Shown here piece by piece: positions 19,116 to 25,634 of a DNA stretch of 44,772 nt. The stretch is from positions 184,581 through 229,352 of the forward strand of contig CAJARJ010000018.1 of assembly GCA_903944345.1 (NCBI GenBank). Reading direction: 5' to 3'. Position 1 is the first letter of the stretch. Each line of letters begins with the position of its first letter. Both the position numbers and the translations under genes were made by a program. The notes below the pieces were generated by a model, which did not search any database, was not told the DNA's origin, and worked only from the letters and a program-made list of their open reading frames with translations. The DNA comes from Candidatus Omnitrophota bacterium (lineage in GTDB: Bacteria > Omnitrophota > Gorgyraeia > Zapsychrales > Fredricksoniimonadaceae).

Positions 19116-19145
19116 TTGGCTTGCACCGCGGGGGCATGCTATACT
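19116..19145 (+). promoter_or_regulatory. Promoter of the riboswitch leader
   Basis: An extended -10, TGCTATACT (TATACT at 19140-19145), lies 32 bases before the aptamer. TTGGCT (19116-19121), a weak -35, is 18 bases upstream. Transcription would begin near 19152. Confidence 0.6.
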
Positions 19146-19176
19146 TATCAAGGTTGAGGATTCAGTTCTTTGTGGA

Positions 19177-19269
19177 TGTTCGAAAAGGCAAACTACTTGA
19201 AAGAGTAGGACGCAAAGCCGTGAGCCTAACCCCTTGCAAAAGGAGTATGGTTGTCTGGTTGCCGTGACA
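19177..19269 (+). ncRNA. Cyclic-di-GMP riboswitch, GEMM-I class
   Basis: The leader matches the GEMM-I aptamer in order. First comes GGCAAAC, then a six-pair hairpin CTACTT-GAAA-GAGTAG with a GNRA tetraloop, and then the invariant GACGCAAAGCC. The second hairpin region CCTAACCCCTTGCAAAAGG follows and the closing strand is GGTTGCC. P1 can form between TGTTCG (19177-19182) and CGTGACA (19263-19269). By alignment to the Vibrio Vc2 aptamer, the base before CAAAC is G, which fits c-di-GMP rather than cGAMP; that numbering was done by eye. The regulated gene is the small secreted protein at 19333. Confidence 0.9.
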
Positions 19270-19296
19270 GAATCTAATCTGTTGCGTAATACGTCT

Positions 19297-19328
19297 CCCC
19301 TCTTTCAGTAGCCCACAACAAAGGGGGG
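19297..19328 (+). promoter_or_regulatory. SD-sequestering stem (riboswitch expression platform)
   Basis: CCCCTCTTT (19297-19305) can pair over nine positions (one U-G) with AAAGGGGGG (19320-19328), which contains the ribosome binding site of the next gene. Upstream, ACAGA/TCTGT (19267-19271, 19278-19282) competes with the 3' strand of P1. This suggests translational control by the ligand; its direction, on or off, cannot be decided by eye. Confidence 0.65.
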
Positions 19329-19332
19329 CACG

Positions 19333-19605
19333 ATGAAAACACTGTCCGGATTTATTGTTCTTGGATTTATACTCTGCAGTTGCTGCGCTTTTGCCCTGGC
19401 CGGATCAACTACAACCCAATCCTTTACTATAACCGTAAGAATACCTCCTGCGGCATCATTACCGATCTTTCCGCAGAACTCAGACATTTCAGCATCCGGA
19501 TATCAGAAAGTCACTCAAAAAAATAACCCTGCCATTATCACAGAAGAACAACGAATTCTTCCGGATATGCGCAAGGCTGTTTTAAAATCAATTTCGATTC
19601 TCTGA
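19333..19605 (+). CDS. Small secreted protein under c-di-GMP riboswitch control
   Basis: The 90-residue protein has a signal peptide (MKTLSGFIVLGFILCSCCAF, cleavage near ALA-GS). The mature part of about 65 residues opens STTTQSFTITVRIPPAA, an alternating strand resembling the edge strand of secreted fimbrial subunits. It has no Cys after the signal. The rest is polar and unrecognised. The SD lies in the stem at 19297-19328. Its stop codon abuts that of the usher-like gene on the other strand. A role as minor subunit, donor strand or regulator of the fibre encoded opposite is inference. Confidence 0.75.
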   Translation: MKTLSGFIVLGFILCSCCAFALAGSTTTQSFTITVRIPPAASLPIFPQNSDISASGYQKVTQKNNPAIITEEQRILPDMRKAVLKSISIL

Positions 19606-22600
19606 TCAGTCCTCGACCAGCGAGGCCGGGTTAGGCTTGACCGGAACATGGAACACGTAGGTTGAGCCTTCCTGGAGATCGATCTCGGTCTTCACCTTAA
19701 TCAGCGGAACAAACTCGATCGGAACTGAGCTCATATCGAGCGAAATAGTATGCTTGCCTCTGGACGCCCCCCTGAAGAAATAGGTACCACTGTGATCGGA
19801 AGCCACAACGGTCTTCTCATCCAGACGAAGCTTGACTCCCCGCAAATACGTGTCTCCTGAATCCGGTTTGCCATTACCGTTTACGTCAACATAAACCGTT
19901 CCGTAAACCCCGGCCTGACTGGAAAGACCAAAATCCACCCTGCGAACCCCGGCCTGCAAAGTACGAACTTTCTGGAAAGCCGGCGTAACAAAAATCGCGC
20001 CAGCAGGCAAGCTGGGAGTATGCGGAGCCACCGCCACTCGCCGCCCCTTGACAGAAACACGATAATAACCTCGGGCATCAGTCCGGGCCTCTTTTTCGCC
20101 AACCTTGACCACAACCCCCTCAATGCCCTCATCCCCATTAGAGAAAATCTTGTCTCCGTCACGATCCCGGTAAACATAACCGGCCACAAAACCCCAAGGA
20201 TCCCAAACAATATTTGTCCCCCAGGCCATACGCATCCCGAAGCGGACATCCAGATCATGATAAGAAGGATTATCCGAAATCTGCGCCAGCACATTGCGCA
20301 ATCTGCTGTCCATAAAGAAGTTGACGTCTTTTATAGGCGTATAGTTCAAAGCAAGCGAACCCGTTACGCTATCCTCTCCCGAAAGGTAGCTAAAATCTCC
20401 TTCGACATTTCTTTCATTGCGATAGGAAACCCCGGCCATGCCTCTAAGGTTATCGGTGAAATCCTTGTTATAAGATAAACCGGTAGTCATAACCGAAGGC
20501 TGATACCCGTCCTTGGTCAATACTTCTTCGACCCAGGAATATTCATAGTTCACATACCCCGAAAAATTCTGCAGGAAGGGGAGTTGTAAGCCGGTAAGCA
20601 GTGTATAGCGATCCGACTCAATCTGCGGAAAATATTCATATCGTGACAGCTGGGTTGTCCCTCCGGCAAATATCGCTCCGGTACGGCCTCCCAGAAAGGG
20701 AAAAAATCTGGTAACCCGCAGCCCCCCACCCCAAGCCTGGCGAGGAGACTCCTCACCCTGAAGATCAGTATACTGGCCCGAAAGATCAAACGCATACCGG
20801 CCATCTACAGGAACGTTAATCTGACCGCTGACATCGTAATTCAAAGCATGAGGAGAATAGGGGTTAGGCGCAAAATTATTCTGATATAGATTCAGATAGG
20901 TGCTGGCAAACGCCCCCCCCAGATCAGTGCCGGTGGTCCATATTCCTCCGGTTTCCCCCAGACCGGAGGGCGTCCCCAGAACCGAACTGTAATCCTTGTT
21001 AATATCCCTAAAACTCGCCGTCTGATAAACTGGACCATTGTTCCAGAGCAGGCTGGCTATTGCCGCCTTGTCTGCAGAATCGTCACGGGCCAGTTCGGCA
21101 TTAAGCATAGCCTTGTCAATCTGTTGCTGAACTTCAATAGAATAAACTTCCGCAGAAACACCTTCCGTACGGTCTTGTCCATAACCACGGGCATAATTCA
21201 AAGCATAGGAATGTTCCTTGCTAAGAGGGAACAGCACTGCCTGAAAAGTATCCGCTCCGGCATCTATAGTCGAAGACTGGCGGTCGGCCACATAAATTGT
21301 TGAAGCAAGCTGTCGGCCATGACTGGTCGAAAGAGCAAGCCCGTTATCAAAAAGCTTAACTTCTCCAACGACTCCACGCAAATGCGAAGATAAAGTTAAG
21401 GCAGAAAGATCACGATTATAATCGAACACCCGCAAATCCAGATCACTGGTCCAAGGCATCGGAATATCGCTGAGCCCCAGTGTATATGTGGGATAGTCAT
21501 TAATCGGCCTAAAGCCCGCGGCGGTGATAGAACCATCGGAAAGGCCGTAAGGTGTTTCTCCGGTAAAACTGAAAACCTGGGTGATATCATGCGACTGACG
21601 CCCCAGATGGGGCACATTATCCCCCCGATAGAAAGAAGAATTATCCAGACTATAAGACAAACGAAACGGAGCCGAGTGTTCCACCAGGGCATCTTCGGCC
21701 AGACGTCCGGCATCTTTCCCCTCAGGAAGCACGACCTGGACATAAACAGTGGTGCGTCCACGGTCATCCCAGATATGCAAAAACAAACTCCCCCACATCG
21801 GAGCATCAATGCGCAGCTGATCCAGTGAAGTCTTCTTTACGGAGACTATTCCTGGCTCGATTTCGAGAAATCTCTGAATATTACGCCCCTCTACCACAAC
21901 AGCCGCACCCAGCTCGAGCTTGAGGGTTGGCTTGGAAGGATTGGCCTGGATAATATCATCCAGAGAAACCACTTCAATAAATTTACGCTGCCCCGCCTTT
22001 GTGGACGATGAAGCATGAGGTGCTGCAACAGGAAGCGCACTGGCTGGTTTACGAACCTGAACCTCAACCGGAGACCGGACGGGTTCTGAAGCCGGAGCAG
22101 ACACGGGAAGAGCGGCAACCCTGCTTTGGACTCCAGTTAACTGATCCAGAGCCTCCGATACCGCGTTCATTCGGGGCGAAGATAGAACTGGATCCGGCTG
22201 TTCTATGATTTCTGCCTCCACCACCGGAGTACGCCTTGAGGCAGAAGCGTTCTGTAAACGCCCCTCGCGGCTACGGATAATCAAGTTTAAAAACTCCAGC
22301 GGCTCCTGATCGGCGCTATCCATCTGATGCGCCTGATAGAAATAAAGATACGCTGCATCCTCGTCGCCTTTGGCCAACGAATCCTTTCCTTGTGCCAGCA
22401 ACTGCTGATACTGCAAATCTCCCTGTCCTGAGTCAGACCGCTGCAAGGGCCGCCCGGCAGTATCGTATTGTTCTTGCAGACTCTCGAGATAGCGCGCCGG
22501 GGCCTCGGCATCCGGAAACAGGAACTTCGCCCGCTCGAAATAAAATTCGGCGGCATCCCGGTCCTGGTCACGCATAGCCTGGACGCCTTCTTCTATATAG

Positions 22601-22755
22601 TAGCGATAAAGACGGGTACGATTATCGGCAAAAGCCGGAAGAGAAAAAAGCAGAAAGAAAGCAAAAAGAACAATGACCGGAGAATGCCCGAGGAGAGTTC
22701 TTCTGCCTTGCCTGTACTGGTCAGAAAAAATCATCCTCAACATTCCTCCGATCAT
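19606..22755 (-). CDS. Usher-like outer-membrane protein with TPR, CpaC-N-like and SdrD-B-like domains
   Basis: This 1049-residue exported protein has a mosaic layout. A signal peptide ends near FADN (about 43). Two TPR-like helical pairs follow (about 48-95 and 115-160), then a Pro/Ala-rich linker. A domain at about 265-355 resembles the N-terminal domain of pilus secretins (CpaC): LKLELGAAVVVEGRNIQRFL, then EIEPGIVSV. A long beta-rich region (about 365-850) has barrel-type strands such as YTLGLSDIPMPWTSDLDLRV. Two C-terminal SdrD-B/Ig-like domains carry VYRDRDGDKIFSNGDEGIEG and VYVDVNGNGKPDSGDTYLRG. It is last in an operon with chaperone- and pilin-like genes, which suggests an usher that secretes fibre subunits. 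A GGAGG just inside the frame makes the ATG at 22734 a likely true start. Confidence 0.75.
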   Translation of the reverse strand: MIGGMLRMIFSDQYRQGRRTLLGHSPVIVLFAFFLLFSLPAFADNRTRLYRYYIEEGVQAMRDQDRDAAEFYFERAKFLFPDAEAPARYLESLQEQYDTAGRPLQRSDSGQGDLQYQQLLAQGKDSLAKGDEDAAYLYFYQAHQMDSADQEPLEFLNLIIRSREGRLQNASASRRTPVVEAEIIEQPDPVLSSPRMNAVSEALDQLTGVQSRVAALPVSAPASEPVRSPVEVQVRKPASALPVAAPHASSSTKAGQRKFIEVVSLDDIIQANPSKPTLKLELGAAVVVEGRNIQRFLEIEPGIVSVKKTSLDQLRIDAPMWGSLFLHIWDDRGRTTVYVQVVLPEGKDAGRLAEDALVEHSAPFRLSYSLDNSSFYRGDNVPHLGRQSHDITQVFSFTGETPYGLSDGSITAAGFRPINDYPTYTLGLSDIPMPWTSDLDLRVFDYNRDLSALTLSSHLRGVVGEVKLFDNGLALSTSHGRQLASTIYVADRQSSTIDAGADTFQAVLFPLSKEHSYALNYARGYGQDRTEGVSAEVYSIEVQQQIDKAMLNAELARDDSADKAAIASLLWNNGPVYQTASFRDINKDYSSVLGTPSGLGETGGIWTTGTDLGGAFASTYLNLYQNNFAPNPYSPHALNYDVSGQINVPVDGRYAFDLSGQYTDLQGEESPRQAWGGGLRVTRFFPFLGGRTGAIFAGGTTQLSRYEYFPQIESDRYTLLTGLQLPFLQNFSGYVNYEYSWVEEVLTKDGYQPSVMTTGLSYNKDFTDNLRGMAGVSYRNERNVEGDFSYLSGEDSVTGSLALNYTPIKDVNFFMDSRLRNVLAQISDNPSYHDLDVRFGMRMAWGTNIVWDPWGFVAGYVYRDRDGDKIFSNGDEGIEGVVVKVGEKEARTDARGYYRVSVKGRRVAVAPHTPSLPAGAIFVTPAFQKVRTLQAGVRRVDFGLSSQAGVYGTVYVDVNGNGKPDSGDTYLRGVKLRLDEKTVVASDHSGTYFFRGASRGKHTISLDMSSVPIEFVPLIKVKTEIDLQEGSTYVFHVPVKPNPASLVED

Positions 22756-22788: not shown

Positions 22789-23595
22789 TTATTGCAGATT
22801 CTCTATAGTCAAACCGTTTGCACCCTGGGTCAGGGATATCTCCTTAACCGCCACACTACCACTGCCCAAATCAACATTAAGCACCAGAGAATATGTTCCC
22901 GGTGCCAGCTCGGCAGGCAATGCAATCCGCCAGTTGCCGGTTGCCCCTGGAGCAACATACAAATTGGTCCCTTCGCCACGGTGTACCGTTAACCCCTGAG
23001 CATCCAAAAGATAGAAAGTCGTCTTGGGGATCAGGACTAAATCGGACTGATTGACAAAACTGCCCAGAACATCGTTCCCCTCAGCCTTGACGTCCTTAAT
23101 ATCAGCCACTCTGGGGGCATCCTTGGATTCCACAAAAAACAGACAACCCAGGCGTGTTACCAACGCGACTCCGGTTGAATCAATCATTGGAGTCGCTCGC
23201 TCAAAAAACAAAACTCCGTAATGACCACCCTTTATGTCCGCAGGCGCATTAACAGCATAATCGATCACCTGACTCCCGTTCGGAGGCAAAACAAACTCTT
23301 GAGGAGTAAAAGACACCCACTGGCTGGCTGAACCCGGCAGGATTCCCGCCGGCGAGAATTCCTTGTTGCCATCAAAAGGCGGAACATACCGAAAGTCCTC
23401 CCAATAGGCGCGGACGCCTACTTCCTCATCAGAAGTATTATGCAAAACCATTGACCCGCTGGAACGCTCCCCGCCGGCCACGGTCAGGGTGACCTTTCCT
23501 TCCTCAAGGAAGAACTGGGCCCTGACCGGTCCGGTAAGGAACATGAGCAGCAGCGCTATGGACAAACACACCTGTCTCATCATACGCACCCTCAT
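22789..23595 (-). CDS. Periplasmic chaperone-like Ig-fold protein of the fibre locus
   Basis: The 268-residue protein has a signal peptide (cleavage near VRA-QF). A two-domain beta-sandwich layout follows, like PapD-type chaperones and DUF916-type Ig proteins. Domain 1 begins KVTLTVAGGERSSGSMVLHN and includes EFVLPPNGSQVIDYAVNAPA. Domain 2 includes LGSFVNQSDLVLIPKTTFYL and ends with LAPGTYSLVLNVDLGSG. The conserved Arg/Lys anchor of classical chaperones cannot be placed confidently. An SD (AAAGGA) precedes the ATG at 23595. It lies 12 bases after the pilin-like gene and 33 bases before the usher-like gene. Confidence 0.7.
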   Translation of the reverse strand: MRVRMMRQVCLSIALLLMFLTGPVRAQFFLEEGKVTLTVAGGERSSGSMVLHNTSDEEVGVRAYWEDFRYVPPFDGNKEFSPAGILPGSASQWVSFTPQEFVLPPNGSQVIDYAVNAPADIKGGHYGVLFFERATPMIDSTGVALVTRLGCLFFVESKDAPRVADIKDVKAEGNDVLGSFVNQSDLVLIPKTTFYLLDAQGLTVHRGEGTNLYVAPGATGNWRIALPAELAPGTYSLVLNVDLGSGSVAVKEISLTQGANGLTIENLQ

Positions 23596-23607: not shown

Positions 23608-24225
23608 TTAGGAAATTGTCGCGGTAACTTTGAACGTACCGGTATAATCTCCAGCCTTGTCAGACAAGTTGAAACCTTCAGCACCAGTAGGAAGACCAGT
23701 GAACGGAGCAATGTTGCCGCCCAGATAGATTTTAAGGGCTTTGCCAGCAAAAGCTCCAAGATTTTCATTTTCTGTCGCAACATTGTACAACAAAACCTTG
23801 TTCATGGTTGTAATGTCGCTCTCATCTGTAGGATTAGCCACCGTGAACTTGGTGAAATCCACATTGACCTTGTACCCCAAACCCTTACGAGTTGTGGCGC
23901 TGTTTGGGTTGCTGCTTTCGGTATAAGTGAACGCAACGTTCATACTTGTACCCTGTGATCCAGTCGGAGCAACCACAATGGCATAGTAATACTTAGCACG
24001 GTAATCGCCATAAGTGGCATTGTATTCCAACGCTAAGTCCAGATTTCCGGTGTGCAAAGACGCCGGATTGGCTCCTTCATGCTTGAGAACATACATCGAC
24101 GCACCTGCTGAAACCGGCACGTTCGCTGTGGCAATAAAAGAAAACGGATTGCTGTCGGCCAGCAACTGGGAGGTCAGTGACGCAACAAACAACCCCGTGA
24201 ATAATGCAATTCCTAATTTCTTCAT
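23608..24225 (-). CDS. Pilin-like secreted subunit
   Basis: The 205-residue protein has a signal peptide (MKKLGIALFTGLFVASLTSQ, cleavage near LLA-DS). A beta-rich, Cys-free mature part follows, with low charge and many Thr/Asn/Gly. It begins FSFIATANVPVSAGASMYVL and ends DKAGDYTGTFKVTATIS, an alternating final strand typical of fimbrial subunits. There is no type IV pilin N-terminus. Its place between tip-like and chaperone-like genes and its strong SD (GGGGGAG before the ATG at 24225) fit a major subunit. I do not recognise the family. Confidence 0.7.
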   Translation of the reverse strand: MKKLGIALFTGLFVASLTSQLLADSNPFSFIATANVPVSAGASMYVLKHEGANPASLHTGNLDLALEYNATYGDYRAKYYYAIVVAPTGSQGTSMNVAFTYTESSNPNSATTRKGLGYKVNVDFTKFTVANPTDESDITTMNKVLLYNVATENENLGAFAGKALKIYLGGNIAPFTGLPTGAEGFNLSDKAGDYTGTFKVTATIS

Positions 24226-24269: not shown

Positions 24270-25634
24270 TCAATTCTGATTCAAAGAAAACCTTATCGGT
24301 GCCGCGTACTGCCCTCCTTCCGCATACTGTTCCGGTTGCATTTGATAAATAACATTAAAAACAGCCGAATCGCCCTGAGCATTGGACGAAAAGACCGGAT
24401 ATTCTCCGTCTTCAACAGGAGTAAACTCACCTAACTTGCTTTTCCCGCGCTCCCCTGCAGGAATCTCAACCCTCATCTGAAAAGCGTCTTTGGGCAAAGG
24501 TTTACCTTTCTCATTAGTCATAAGATTCGGTACCGTTTGCATGACCTGATAAGGACGACGCAAATTGGTTCTGACCTTCACGGTAACCACCTGCTCACGG
24601 GAAGGCTGCCCGGGCACCAGATTGCCAAACTGCATGCCTTGAGCCGGAGGCGCCACCTCCATCGAAAAAACCGGCTGAATTTCACAATCAAGATCAATGT
24701 CCGCAGACTCTATATCGCCTGCAGTTTCGATTGTATACCGAAGACGCCCTTTATACTCGCCAGCATCAAGACCGGAAAGAGCCGAAGAATCAAGCAAAAG
24801 CCTGACAAAGACCTTGTCTTGTGATGATCGTCCCGAATAAACAAGCACCCGCCCCCGGGTCATGGCTTCGAATTCACGCTGCCGCATCCCCTGTCCACTG
24901 GCGGAATCCACACTAAAACGCAGAGCATCCGCAGGCATTTCCCGACCTATAACTCCCGCGGGAAGAATAACCGCCTCCTGATAAATCCGAACCTCATTGT
25001 CGGAATCGACTGAAAAATCAACTTCAACCTGATCTCTCAAGACATTTTCGGAATCTGTATCGCGCACCTCGACCCGGTTCTTGTTACGCGCGCCTGAAAC
25101 CTCAAATTTACGCTCTGAAGCTTTTTCAAGACTGACGGGTATGGTGACCTGAGCCTGCGAACCGTCTTCAAGACTGCGAACGGCAAGGAGCAGCTGACCG
25201 GAGTACACCCCACCAGGCCCGGGGACTTGAGGATCAAAGGAATAATTAAGGGCAAAGATATCCCCGGGACCATTTTGACCGGAGGAATATAAGAGCTGCT
25301 CGCCCATACTGATACGTTCTGGACTCTGAATATAAAGAGTACCCGCTGAATTGGAGCCGGGAACGGATACAACTTCCAAAGCACGGAAGTCGAGTGTCTC
25401 CCCTTTTTCATTGCGCATAGGTTCGACGAAACGCTGAAAAACCCGATACCGCTTACCGTCTGTTGAGCTGATACGAACCCGCAATTCCTTAAATTCAGAG
25501 GAATGACCAAACCCGGGGCGAAAGCGCAAATTGGTTCCTCCATCAGTAGGATTGACGCTGATTGAAAGCCCAGCATATGCCGATCCCGACAGAAAAGAAA
25601 TAAGAATGGATATAAGAAGAAGCCAAGCTTTCAT
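24270..25634 (-). CDS. Two-lobed exported protein, probable fibre tip or adhesin
   Basis: The 454-residue protein has a signal peptide (MKAWLLLISILISFLSGSAY, cleavage near AYA-GL) and a beta-rich mature part with no Cys except one in VDLDCEIQ. It contains an internal duplication. The first lobe (about 20-150) has YRVFQRFVEPMRNEKGETL and a later LLYSSGQNG. The last lobe (about 330-454) has YQVMQTVPNLMTNEKGKPL and PVFSSNAQG, in the same order. The middle region is different. Being first in the operon and larger than the pilin-like protein, it could be the tip subunit. It has a good promoter and SD (AAGGGA). Confidence 0.65.
   Translation of the reverse strand: MKAWLLLISILISFLSGSAYAGLSISVNPTDGGTNLRFRPGFGHSSEFKELRVRISSTDGKRYRVFQRFVEPMRNEKGETLDFRALEVVSVPGSNSAGTLYIQSPERISMGEQLLYSSGQNGPGDIFALNYSFDPQVPGPGGVYSGQLLLAVRSLEDGSQAQVTIPVSLEKASERKFEVSGARNKNRVEVRDTDSENVLRDQVEVDFSVDSDNEVRIYQEAVILPAGVIGREMPADALRFSVDSASGQGMRQREFEAMTRGRVLVYSGRSSQDKVFVRLLLDSSALSGLDAGEYKGRLRYTIETAGDIESADIDLDCEIQPVFSMEVAPPAQGMQFGNLVPGQPSREQVVTVKVRTNLRRPYQVMQTVPNLMTNEKGKPLPKDAFQMRVEIPAGERGKSKLGEFTPVEDGEYPVFSSNAQGDSAVFNVIYQMQPEQYAEGGQYAAPIRFSLNQN

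What the first reader, a model, noticed from the sequence alone, without database searches (positions are those of the whole stretch)
19116..19605. c-di-GMP riboswitch with an SD-hiding stem controls a 90-residue secreted protein
The GEMM-I aptamer is almost textbook, and the ribosome site of the next gene lies in a nine-pair stem directly downstream. An ACAGA/TCTGT hairpin competes with the aptamer's closing helix, giving a plausible two-state switch. The only gene controlled is tiny, secreted and opposite a fibre operon, which links surface structure to the biofilm second messenger.
Basis: partly seen in the sequence, partly recalled or inferred. Interest (0 to 1): 0.7.

Follow-up and report, generated by a model that had tools for sequence, protein, structure and literature searches.

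The report
c-di-GMP riboswitch controlling mini fibre protein
In an uncultured Omnitrophota bacterium a genuine c-di-GMP riboswitch sits before a tiny secreted protein that faces a surface-fibre operon; the same arrangement recurs across the bacterial order, and sequence comparison predicts that c-di-GMP switches the tiny protein off by an unusual refolding in which a hairpin of the sensor itself pairs with the control region.

Summary
The aptamer is real: c-di-GMP-I at 19177-19266, 69.7 bits against a cut-off of 35. A stem of 9+3 pairs hides the ribosome site of the 90-aa gene at 19333-19605. The organism belongs to Ca. Omnitrophota.

The arrangement is conserved. Relatives of the small secreted protein (70-99 aa, no Pfam family) have a c-di-GMP-I aptamer upstream in about 41 of 43 loci. 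A predicted fibre operon lies convergent to it in most relatives.

A better-supported switch is CUCUUUCAGUAG (19300-19311, in the SD-hiding strand) pairing with the aptamer's own P2 hairpin (19193-19205). The two states are nearly isoenergetic. The P2/platform pairing coevolves across 31 leaders (p=1e-4; within the family p=4e-4), unlike the rest of the aptamer. This predicts an OFF switch: c-di-GMP keeps P2 folded and the SD hidden. Most distant relatives use the same strand as a terminator arm.

New extra: a boxA (GYTCTTT, as in rRNA leaders) just upstream of the aptamer in 27 of 41 such leaders. The small protein's N-terminus resembles the fibre subunit's; a mini-subunit role is inference. 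No bench data.

The parts
19116..19145 (+). predicted promoter: -35 TTGGCT (19116-19121), 18 nt, TG-TATACT (19140-19145)
   Evidence: 9 of 12 matches; 2 found vs 0.9 expected in shuffles, so weak alone
19165..19171 (+). boxA-like element GTTCTTT(G), predicted NusB/S10 site at the 5' end of the transcript
   Evidence: 27/41 small-protein leaders vs 9/79 other GEMM leaders, Fisher 1e-9; same motif 58-74 nt before 16S rRNA in the same family, own genome included
19177..19266 (+). c-di-GMP-I (GEMM-I) aptamer
   Evidence: RF01051 69.7 bits, gathering 35
19193..19208 (+). aptamer P2 hairpin CUACUU-GAAA-GAGUAG; predicted switching strand
19292..19305 (+). 5' arm of the SD-hiding stem (CGU 19292-19294; CCCCUCUUU 19297-19305)
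19300..19311 (+). CUCUUUCAGUAG: complement of P2 (19193-19196 + 19198-19205), 12 pairs, -14.1 kcal/mol
19320..19332 (+). ribosome-binding region AAAGGGGGGCACG, 3' arm of the SD-hiding stem
19333..19605 (+). 90-aa secreted protein, family of 70-99 aa proteins in Omnitrophota
19606..22755 (-). 1049-aa usher-like outer-membrane protein of the convergent operon (TPR, pilus-N-like, SdrD_B); usher identity not confirmed
22789..23595 (-). 268-aa fimbrial-chaperone-like protein
   Evidence: EcpB E=0.089; hhalign to EcpB 84%, reversed control 0.1%
23608..24225 (-). 205-aa predicted fibre subunit; mature N-terminus resembles that of the small protein
24270..25634 (-). 454-aa secreted protein, first gene of the convergent operon

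Best explanation
This is a c-di-GMP-I riboswitch acting as a translational OFF switch on a small secreted protein that belongs to the neighbouring fibre system. Without c-di-GMP, CUCUUUCAGUAG (19300-19311) pairs with the P2 hairpin of the aptamer (19193-19205). That pairing removes the 5' arm of the SD-hiding stem and leaves the ribosome site accessible. With c-di-GMP, P2 and its GAAA loop are locked in the aptamer, the 19292-19305 arm is free, and it pairs with the ribosome site (19320-19332), so translation stops. In most distant relatives the same arm also forms an intrinsic terminator. Shown: aptamer, SD stem, conserved gene pairing, conserved neighbourhood, coevolution of P2 with the platform. 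Inferred: ligand binding, direction (OFF), refolding during transcription, role of boxA, and that the small protein is a truncated subunit that joins or caps the fibre.
For: Aptamer at twice the cut-off; G at the position of Vc2 G20, with C92 and A47 equivalents, reads as c-di-GMP type (numbering from established structure work). The own genome encodes GGDEF proteins with intact GGEEF. Relatives: about 41 of 43 small-protein loci have the aptamer upstream (L089 read by eye), and 30 of about 34 adequately long fibre-operon loci have it convergent. P2 versus platform: own pairs beat swapped pairs, z=-4.3, p=1e-4, n=31; within the family p=4e-4; the rest of the aptamer gives no signal. Shuffle z is -2.35 in small-protein leaders versus -0.05 in 73 other GEMM leaders. 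In the window the two states lie within about 2 kcal/mol (-58.9 vs -57.0), and the SD is 53% unpaired with the P2:platform pairing versus 11% with P2 folded.
Against: No probing, transcript or reporter data. Swap tests do not fully control for shared ancestry. In about half of the relatives the P2:platform state is predicted 5 kcal/mol or more weaker than P2 folded, so it would need co-transcriptional kinetics. Three relatives with a P2 hairpin (L081, L203, L181) show little or no complementarity. Four relatives start translation 9-11 nt after the aptamer and have no such platform. Duplex energies ignore tertiary structure.
Confidence: 0.6

Rival explanations
1. One reading: the ACAGA/TCTGT hairpin competes with the aptamer's closing helix and so couples ligand binding to the SD stem.
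For: The hairpin is real and can extend into 19263-19266 at the 3' edge of the aptamer; a hairpin stands at the same place in most family leaders.
Against: It forms in both computed states and leaves the SD stem unaffected. The upstream strand has no clear closing helix in Rfam's model. Hairpin sequences differ freely between relatives.
Confidence: 0.12
2. An ON switch: c-di-GMP binding frees the SD through a route not seen here (for example tertiary contacts or a longer P1).
For: ON-type cyclic-dinucleotide switches exist (pilM, PMC9262584).
Against: The strand that hides the SD or ends transcription is the one paired with P2 in the ligand-free state, in the window and in most relatives, which gives OFF.
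Confidence: 0.15
3. The CUCUUUC strand is conserved only because it is the complement of the SD or a terminator arm, and its match to P2 is incidental.
For: Both constraints act on the same strand; GNRA loops always contribute GAAA.
Against: Own-versus-swapped coevolution, also within the family. In L074 the CUCUUUCAAG element lies outside the best SD stem yet matches P2 over 10 nt. L092 (CUGC/GCAG), L076 and L210 change on both sides. No signal in 73 other GEMM leaders.
Confidence: 0.15
4. The small protein is unrelated to the fibre and merely neighbours it.
For: Outside the mature N-terminal 21 residues there is no detectable similarity, and without the signal peptide the profile match is weak (27.6%). 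No fold could be predicted.
Against: Neighbourhood conserved over the order; profile match to the subunit N-terminus 94.8% with signal peptide and E=6.5e-4 without, in the same register, reversed control 0.1%.
Confidence: 0.3

Closest known systems
c-di-GMP-I (GEMM-I) riboswitch, RF01051
   Same: Aptamer sequence, GAAA tetraloop and receptor, binding-site nucleotides
   Different: Target family not described before as far as the held literature shows; predicted use of P2 as switching strand; boxA upstream
Cd1 OFF switch of C. difficile (PMC9262584)
   Same: Ligand-bound aptamer coexists with the repressive structure; a downstream strand T pairs with an aptamer strand in the ON state
   Different: Cd1 works by a terminator. 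The text held defines strand A as the aptamer-stabilising partner of the 5' strand and does not describe P2 as the partner; figures could not be seen. Here P2 is the predicted partner and in the window the platform is an SD stem.
Translational c-di-GMP OFF riboswitch masking a distant ribosome site (Genes Cells 2018;23:435, cited in PMC9262584; not read)
   Same: c-di-GMP-dependent masking of the ribosome site
   Different: Details not compared, paper not held
boxA (consensus GYTCTTTAANA, PMC5725501)
   Same: Core GYTCTTT, as in rRNA leaders of the same bacteria
   Different: Placed directly before a riboswitch aptamer; no held paper found describes this
Alternate chaperone-usher fibres (ECP, EcpA-E)
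   Same: Chaperone-like protein matches EcpB; operon of secreted subunit, chaperone and large outer-membrane protein
   Different: Usher-like protein shows no similarity to EcpC; a riboswitch-controlled mini-protein is not part of ECP

Membership tests
c-di-GMP-I riboswitch (RF01051) | covariance model score above gathering threshold, full length | tested here: met
   69.7 vs 35 bits, positions 1-87
c-di-GMP-I riboswitch (RF01051) | GNRA tetraloop in P2 and tetraloop receptor in P3 | tested here: met
   GAAA 19199-19202; CCUAA/UAUGG receptor in the alignment
c-di-GMP-I riboswitch (RF01051) | ligand contacts equivalent to Vc2 G20, A47, C92 | tested here: met
   G19187, A in GACGCAAAGCC, C19262 by alignment; numbering from knowledge
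c-di-GMP-I riboswitch (RF01051) | binds c-di-GMP and changes gene expression | not testable with these tools
   needs probing or reporters
cGAMP-type GEMM-Ib | A at the G20 position | tested here: not met
   G in the window; A occurs in relatives L067 and L081
translational OFF riboswitch with SD sequestration | mutually exclusive anti-sequestor and sequestor structures | tested here: met
   computed only:
boxA / Nus antitermination site | matches the rRNA-leader boxA of the same organism | tested here: met
   GTTCTTTG in both
boxA / Nus antitermination site | bound by NusB-S10 | not testable with these tools
   needs a binding assay
chaperone-usher fibre system | PapD-like chaperone | tested here: inconclusive
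   EcpB E=0.089 in PDB search; hhalign 84%
chaperone-usher fibre system | usher family protein | tested here: not met
   no usher Pfam family, no match to EcpC by sequence; fold could not be predicted
chaperone-usher fibre system | subunits joined by donor strands | tested here: inconclusive
   shared N-terminal motif only; structure prediction unavailable

The most novel reading that the evidence does not exclude
Across an Omnitrophota order, a c-di-GMP OFF riboswitch, whose GNRA-capped P2 hairpin itself is the anti-sequestor/anti-terminator strand and which carries a boxA at its 5' end, controls a truncated fibre subunit that caps, anchors or blocks a chaperone-usher-like fibre. c-di-GMP would thereby set fibre length or number through a donor-strand mini-protein.
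Probability: 0.25. Interest if true: 0.78.

Novelty: new variant of a known kind. Interest (0 to 1): 0.55.

Why it matters
It ties the biofilm messenger c-di-GMP to a fibre system in a large uncultured phylum for which no riboswitch paper was found. It offers a testable new expression-platform design for a well-studied riboswitch class and a riboswitch-boxA pairing not seen in the held literature. It also gives a compact hypothesis for how a second messenger could tune fibre assembly with a tiny protein.

Tried and rejected
Relatives of the 90-aa protein by single sequence: only a chance antisense match, L006. Genome-contig scan with the single protein: nothing. boxA pairing with P2, RBS or platform as an alternative role: no coevolution. 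Matching the large protein to known ushers: none. PDB search with the subunit profile: nothing useful. First pass over downstream genes misread loci on the minus strand, corrected.

Full report
OBSERVATION. Rfam's c-di-GMP-I model matches 19177-19266 over its full length at 69.7 bits, against a gathering score of 35. The next + strand gene is the 90-codon ORF 19333-19605, with a signal peptide ending near ...CAFALA. The 9-pair stem CCCCTCTTT (19297-19305) / AAAGGGGGG (19320-19328), extended by CGT/ACG, covers its ribosome site. A promoter-like pair TTGGCT/TATACT lies at 19116-19145. The ORF is convergent with a four-gene operon, 25634 to 19606 on the - strand.

ORGANISM AND RELATIVES. Titles of contigs with relatives of the operon's chaperone-like protein are Candidatus Omnitrophota, apart from a few odd or weak ones. 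The own genome has three c-di-GMP-I matches above the cut-off, and GGDEF proteins with intact GGEEF motifs. c-di-GMP-I aptamers occur in 170 of 190 relatives.

A CONSERVED PAIRING. Reading downstream of aptamers in relatives showed the same kind of 70-99-aa secreted protein again and again. A profile from twelve of them (A1) found members in 46 of 190 relatives, counting some that match only the N-terminal part of larger subunits. Of 43 small-protein loci examined, 40 carry an aptamer found by Rfam or by model R1, and L089 has one with a long P3 insert readable by eye, so about 41 of 43. The operon p454 - subunit - chaperone - usher-like lies convergent in most of the loci fetched. From the other direction, 30 of 41 chaperone loci have the aptamer on the opposite strand downstream; my count of loci with enough flanking DNA is about 34.

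THE SWITCH. In family relatives the leader typically ends in CGYCCTCTCTTTC...GGAGGGCGAAATG, an SD-hiding stem. In more distant relatives the same strand is the 5' arm of an intrinsic terminator (17 of 22 leaders outside the family). This strand also matches the aptamer's P2 hairpin, (CUU)GAAAGAG. In the window the match is CUAC.UGAAAGAG with CUCUUUCAGUAG, 12 pairs with one bulge, -14.1 kcal/mol. Over 31 leaders, own P2/platform pairs are stronger than swapped ones (z=-4.3, p=1e-4). The same holds within the family (n=11, p=4e-4) and outside it (n=20, p=0.008); the rest of the aptamer shows nothing. Changes on both sides are seen, for example L092 CUGC/GCAG. The signal is absent from 73 other GEMM leaders in this phylum (shuffle z -0.05 versus -2.35). 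The window's full leader has its minimum-energy fold in the P2:platform state (-58.9), with the P2-folded, SD-hidden state at -57.0; the SD is 53% versus 11% unpaired. Ligand binding would favour the second state, hence OFF. Four relatives (L067, L072, L079, L080) have the start codon 9-11 nt after the aptamer, where a folded aptamer could simply crowd the ribosome site (inference).

BOXA. GYTCTTT stands just upstream of the aptamer in 27 of 41 small-protein leaders against 9 of 79 other GEMM leaders (Fisher p=1e-9); background expectation is 0.007 per leader. The same motif precedes 16S rRNA by 58-74 nt in all eight family genomes with complete 16S and in the own genome, and it fits the published boxA consensus GYTCTTTAANA (PMC5725501). 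It does not coevolve with P2, RBS or platform, as expected of a protein site. Its role here (for example protecting an untranslated leader from Rho) is inference. No held paper found joins riboswitch and boxA in this way.

THE PROTEINS. The small protein's mature start (S-T-x-S/T-F-x-I/V-S-V-T-I-P) aligns in register with the start of the ~205-aa operon subunit: hhalign 94.8% with signal peptide, 27.6% and E=6.5e-4 without, reversed control 0.1%. That is the place of a donor strand in chaperone-usher fibres (established knowledge), so a truncated subunit that joins or caps the fibre is a reasonable guess. The 268-aa protein resembles the chaperone EcpB. The 1049-aa protein is not recognisable as a known usher.

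NOVELTY. The aptamer class is known, and OFF control through terminators or SD masking is known (PMC9262584, PMC11218506). What appears new, within the limits of the held library, is P2 as the switching strand, the boxA and the fibre-linked mini-protein family. Hence: new variant of a known kind.

Noticed in passing
G000:C7:20829-20921 (L002): Second c-di-GMP-I aptamer of the own genome, 146 nt before a 542-aa secreted glycosidase-like protein; the same pairing recurs in L021, L053, L054, L060 and L064.
   Followed up: partly
G000:C3:22478-22587 (L003); L062, L126, L128-L131, L133, L134: Weak but sequence-conserved GEMM-like element (near AGCCGATAAAGGTAAACCYGG) at 34-46 bits in about nine genomes, in the own genome next to trpF and with no clear gene behind it.
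   Followed up: no
L067, L081, L011, L104, L109: Aptamers with A at the position of Vc2 G20, the cGAMP-type signature, in relatives; in L067 and L081 before the same small protein.
   Followed up: no
L014, L019, L020, L029, L094, L198, L207: c-di-GMP-I aptamers before a 75-115 aa protein with a motif like RVVxFLxRxExDFLDKxxKD (possible DNA-binding regulator), in L094, L198 and L207 followed by the small fibre-linked protein.
   Followed up: no
L091, L180, L085, L092, L186, L175: c-di-GMP-I aptamers with large insertions after P2, and split-looking matches.
   Followed up: no
L046, L049, L065: c-di-GMP-I aptamers before a 255-aa response-regulator protein in three genomes.
   Followed up: no
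L083 (G029:C85): The conserved small ORF is out of frame with the nearest ATG in this metagenome assembly (real frameshift or assembly error).
   Followed up: no
L025, L034: Aptamers before a different 92-aa secreted protein; these leaders also show strong P2/platform complementarity.
   Followed up: no
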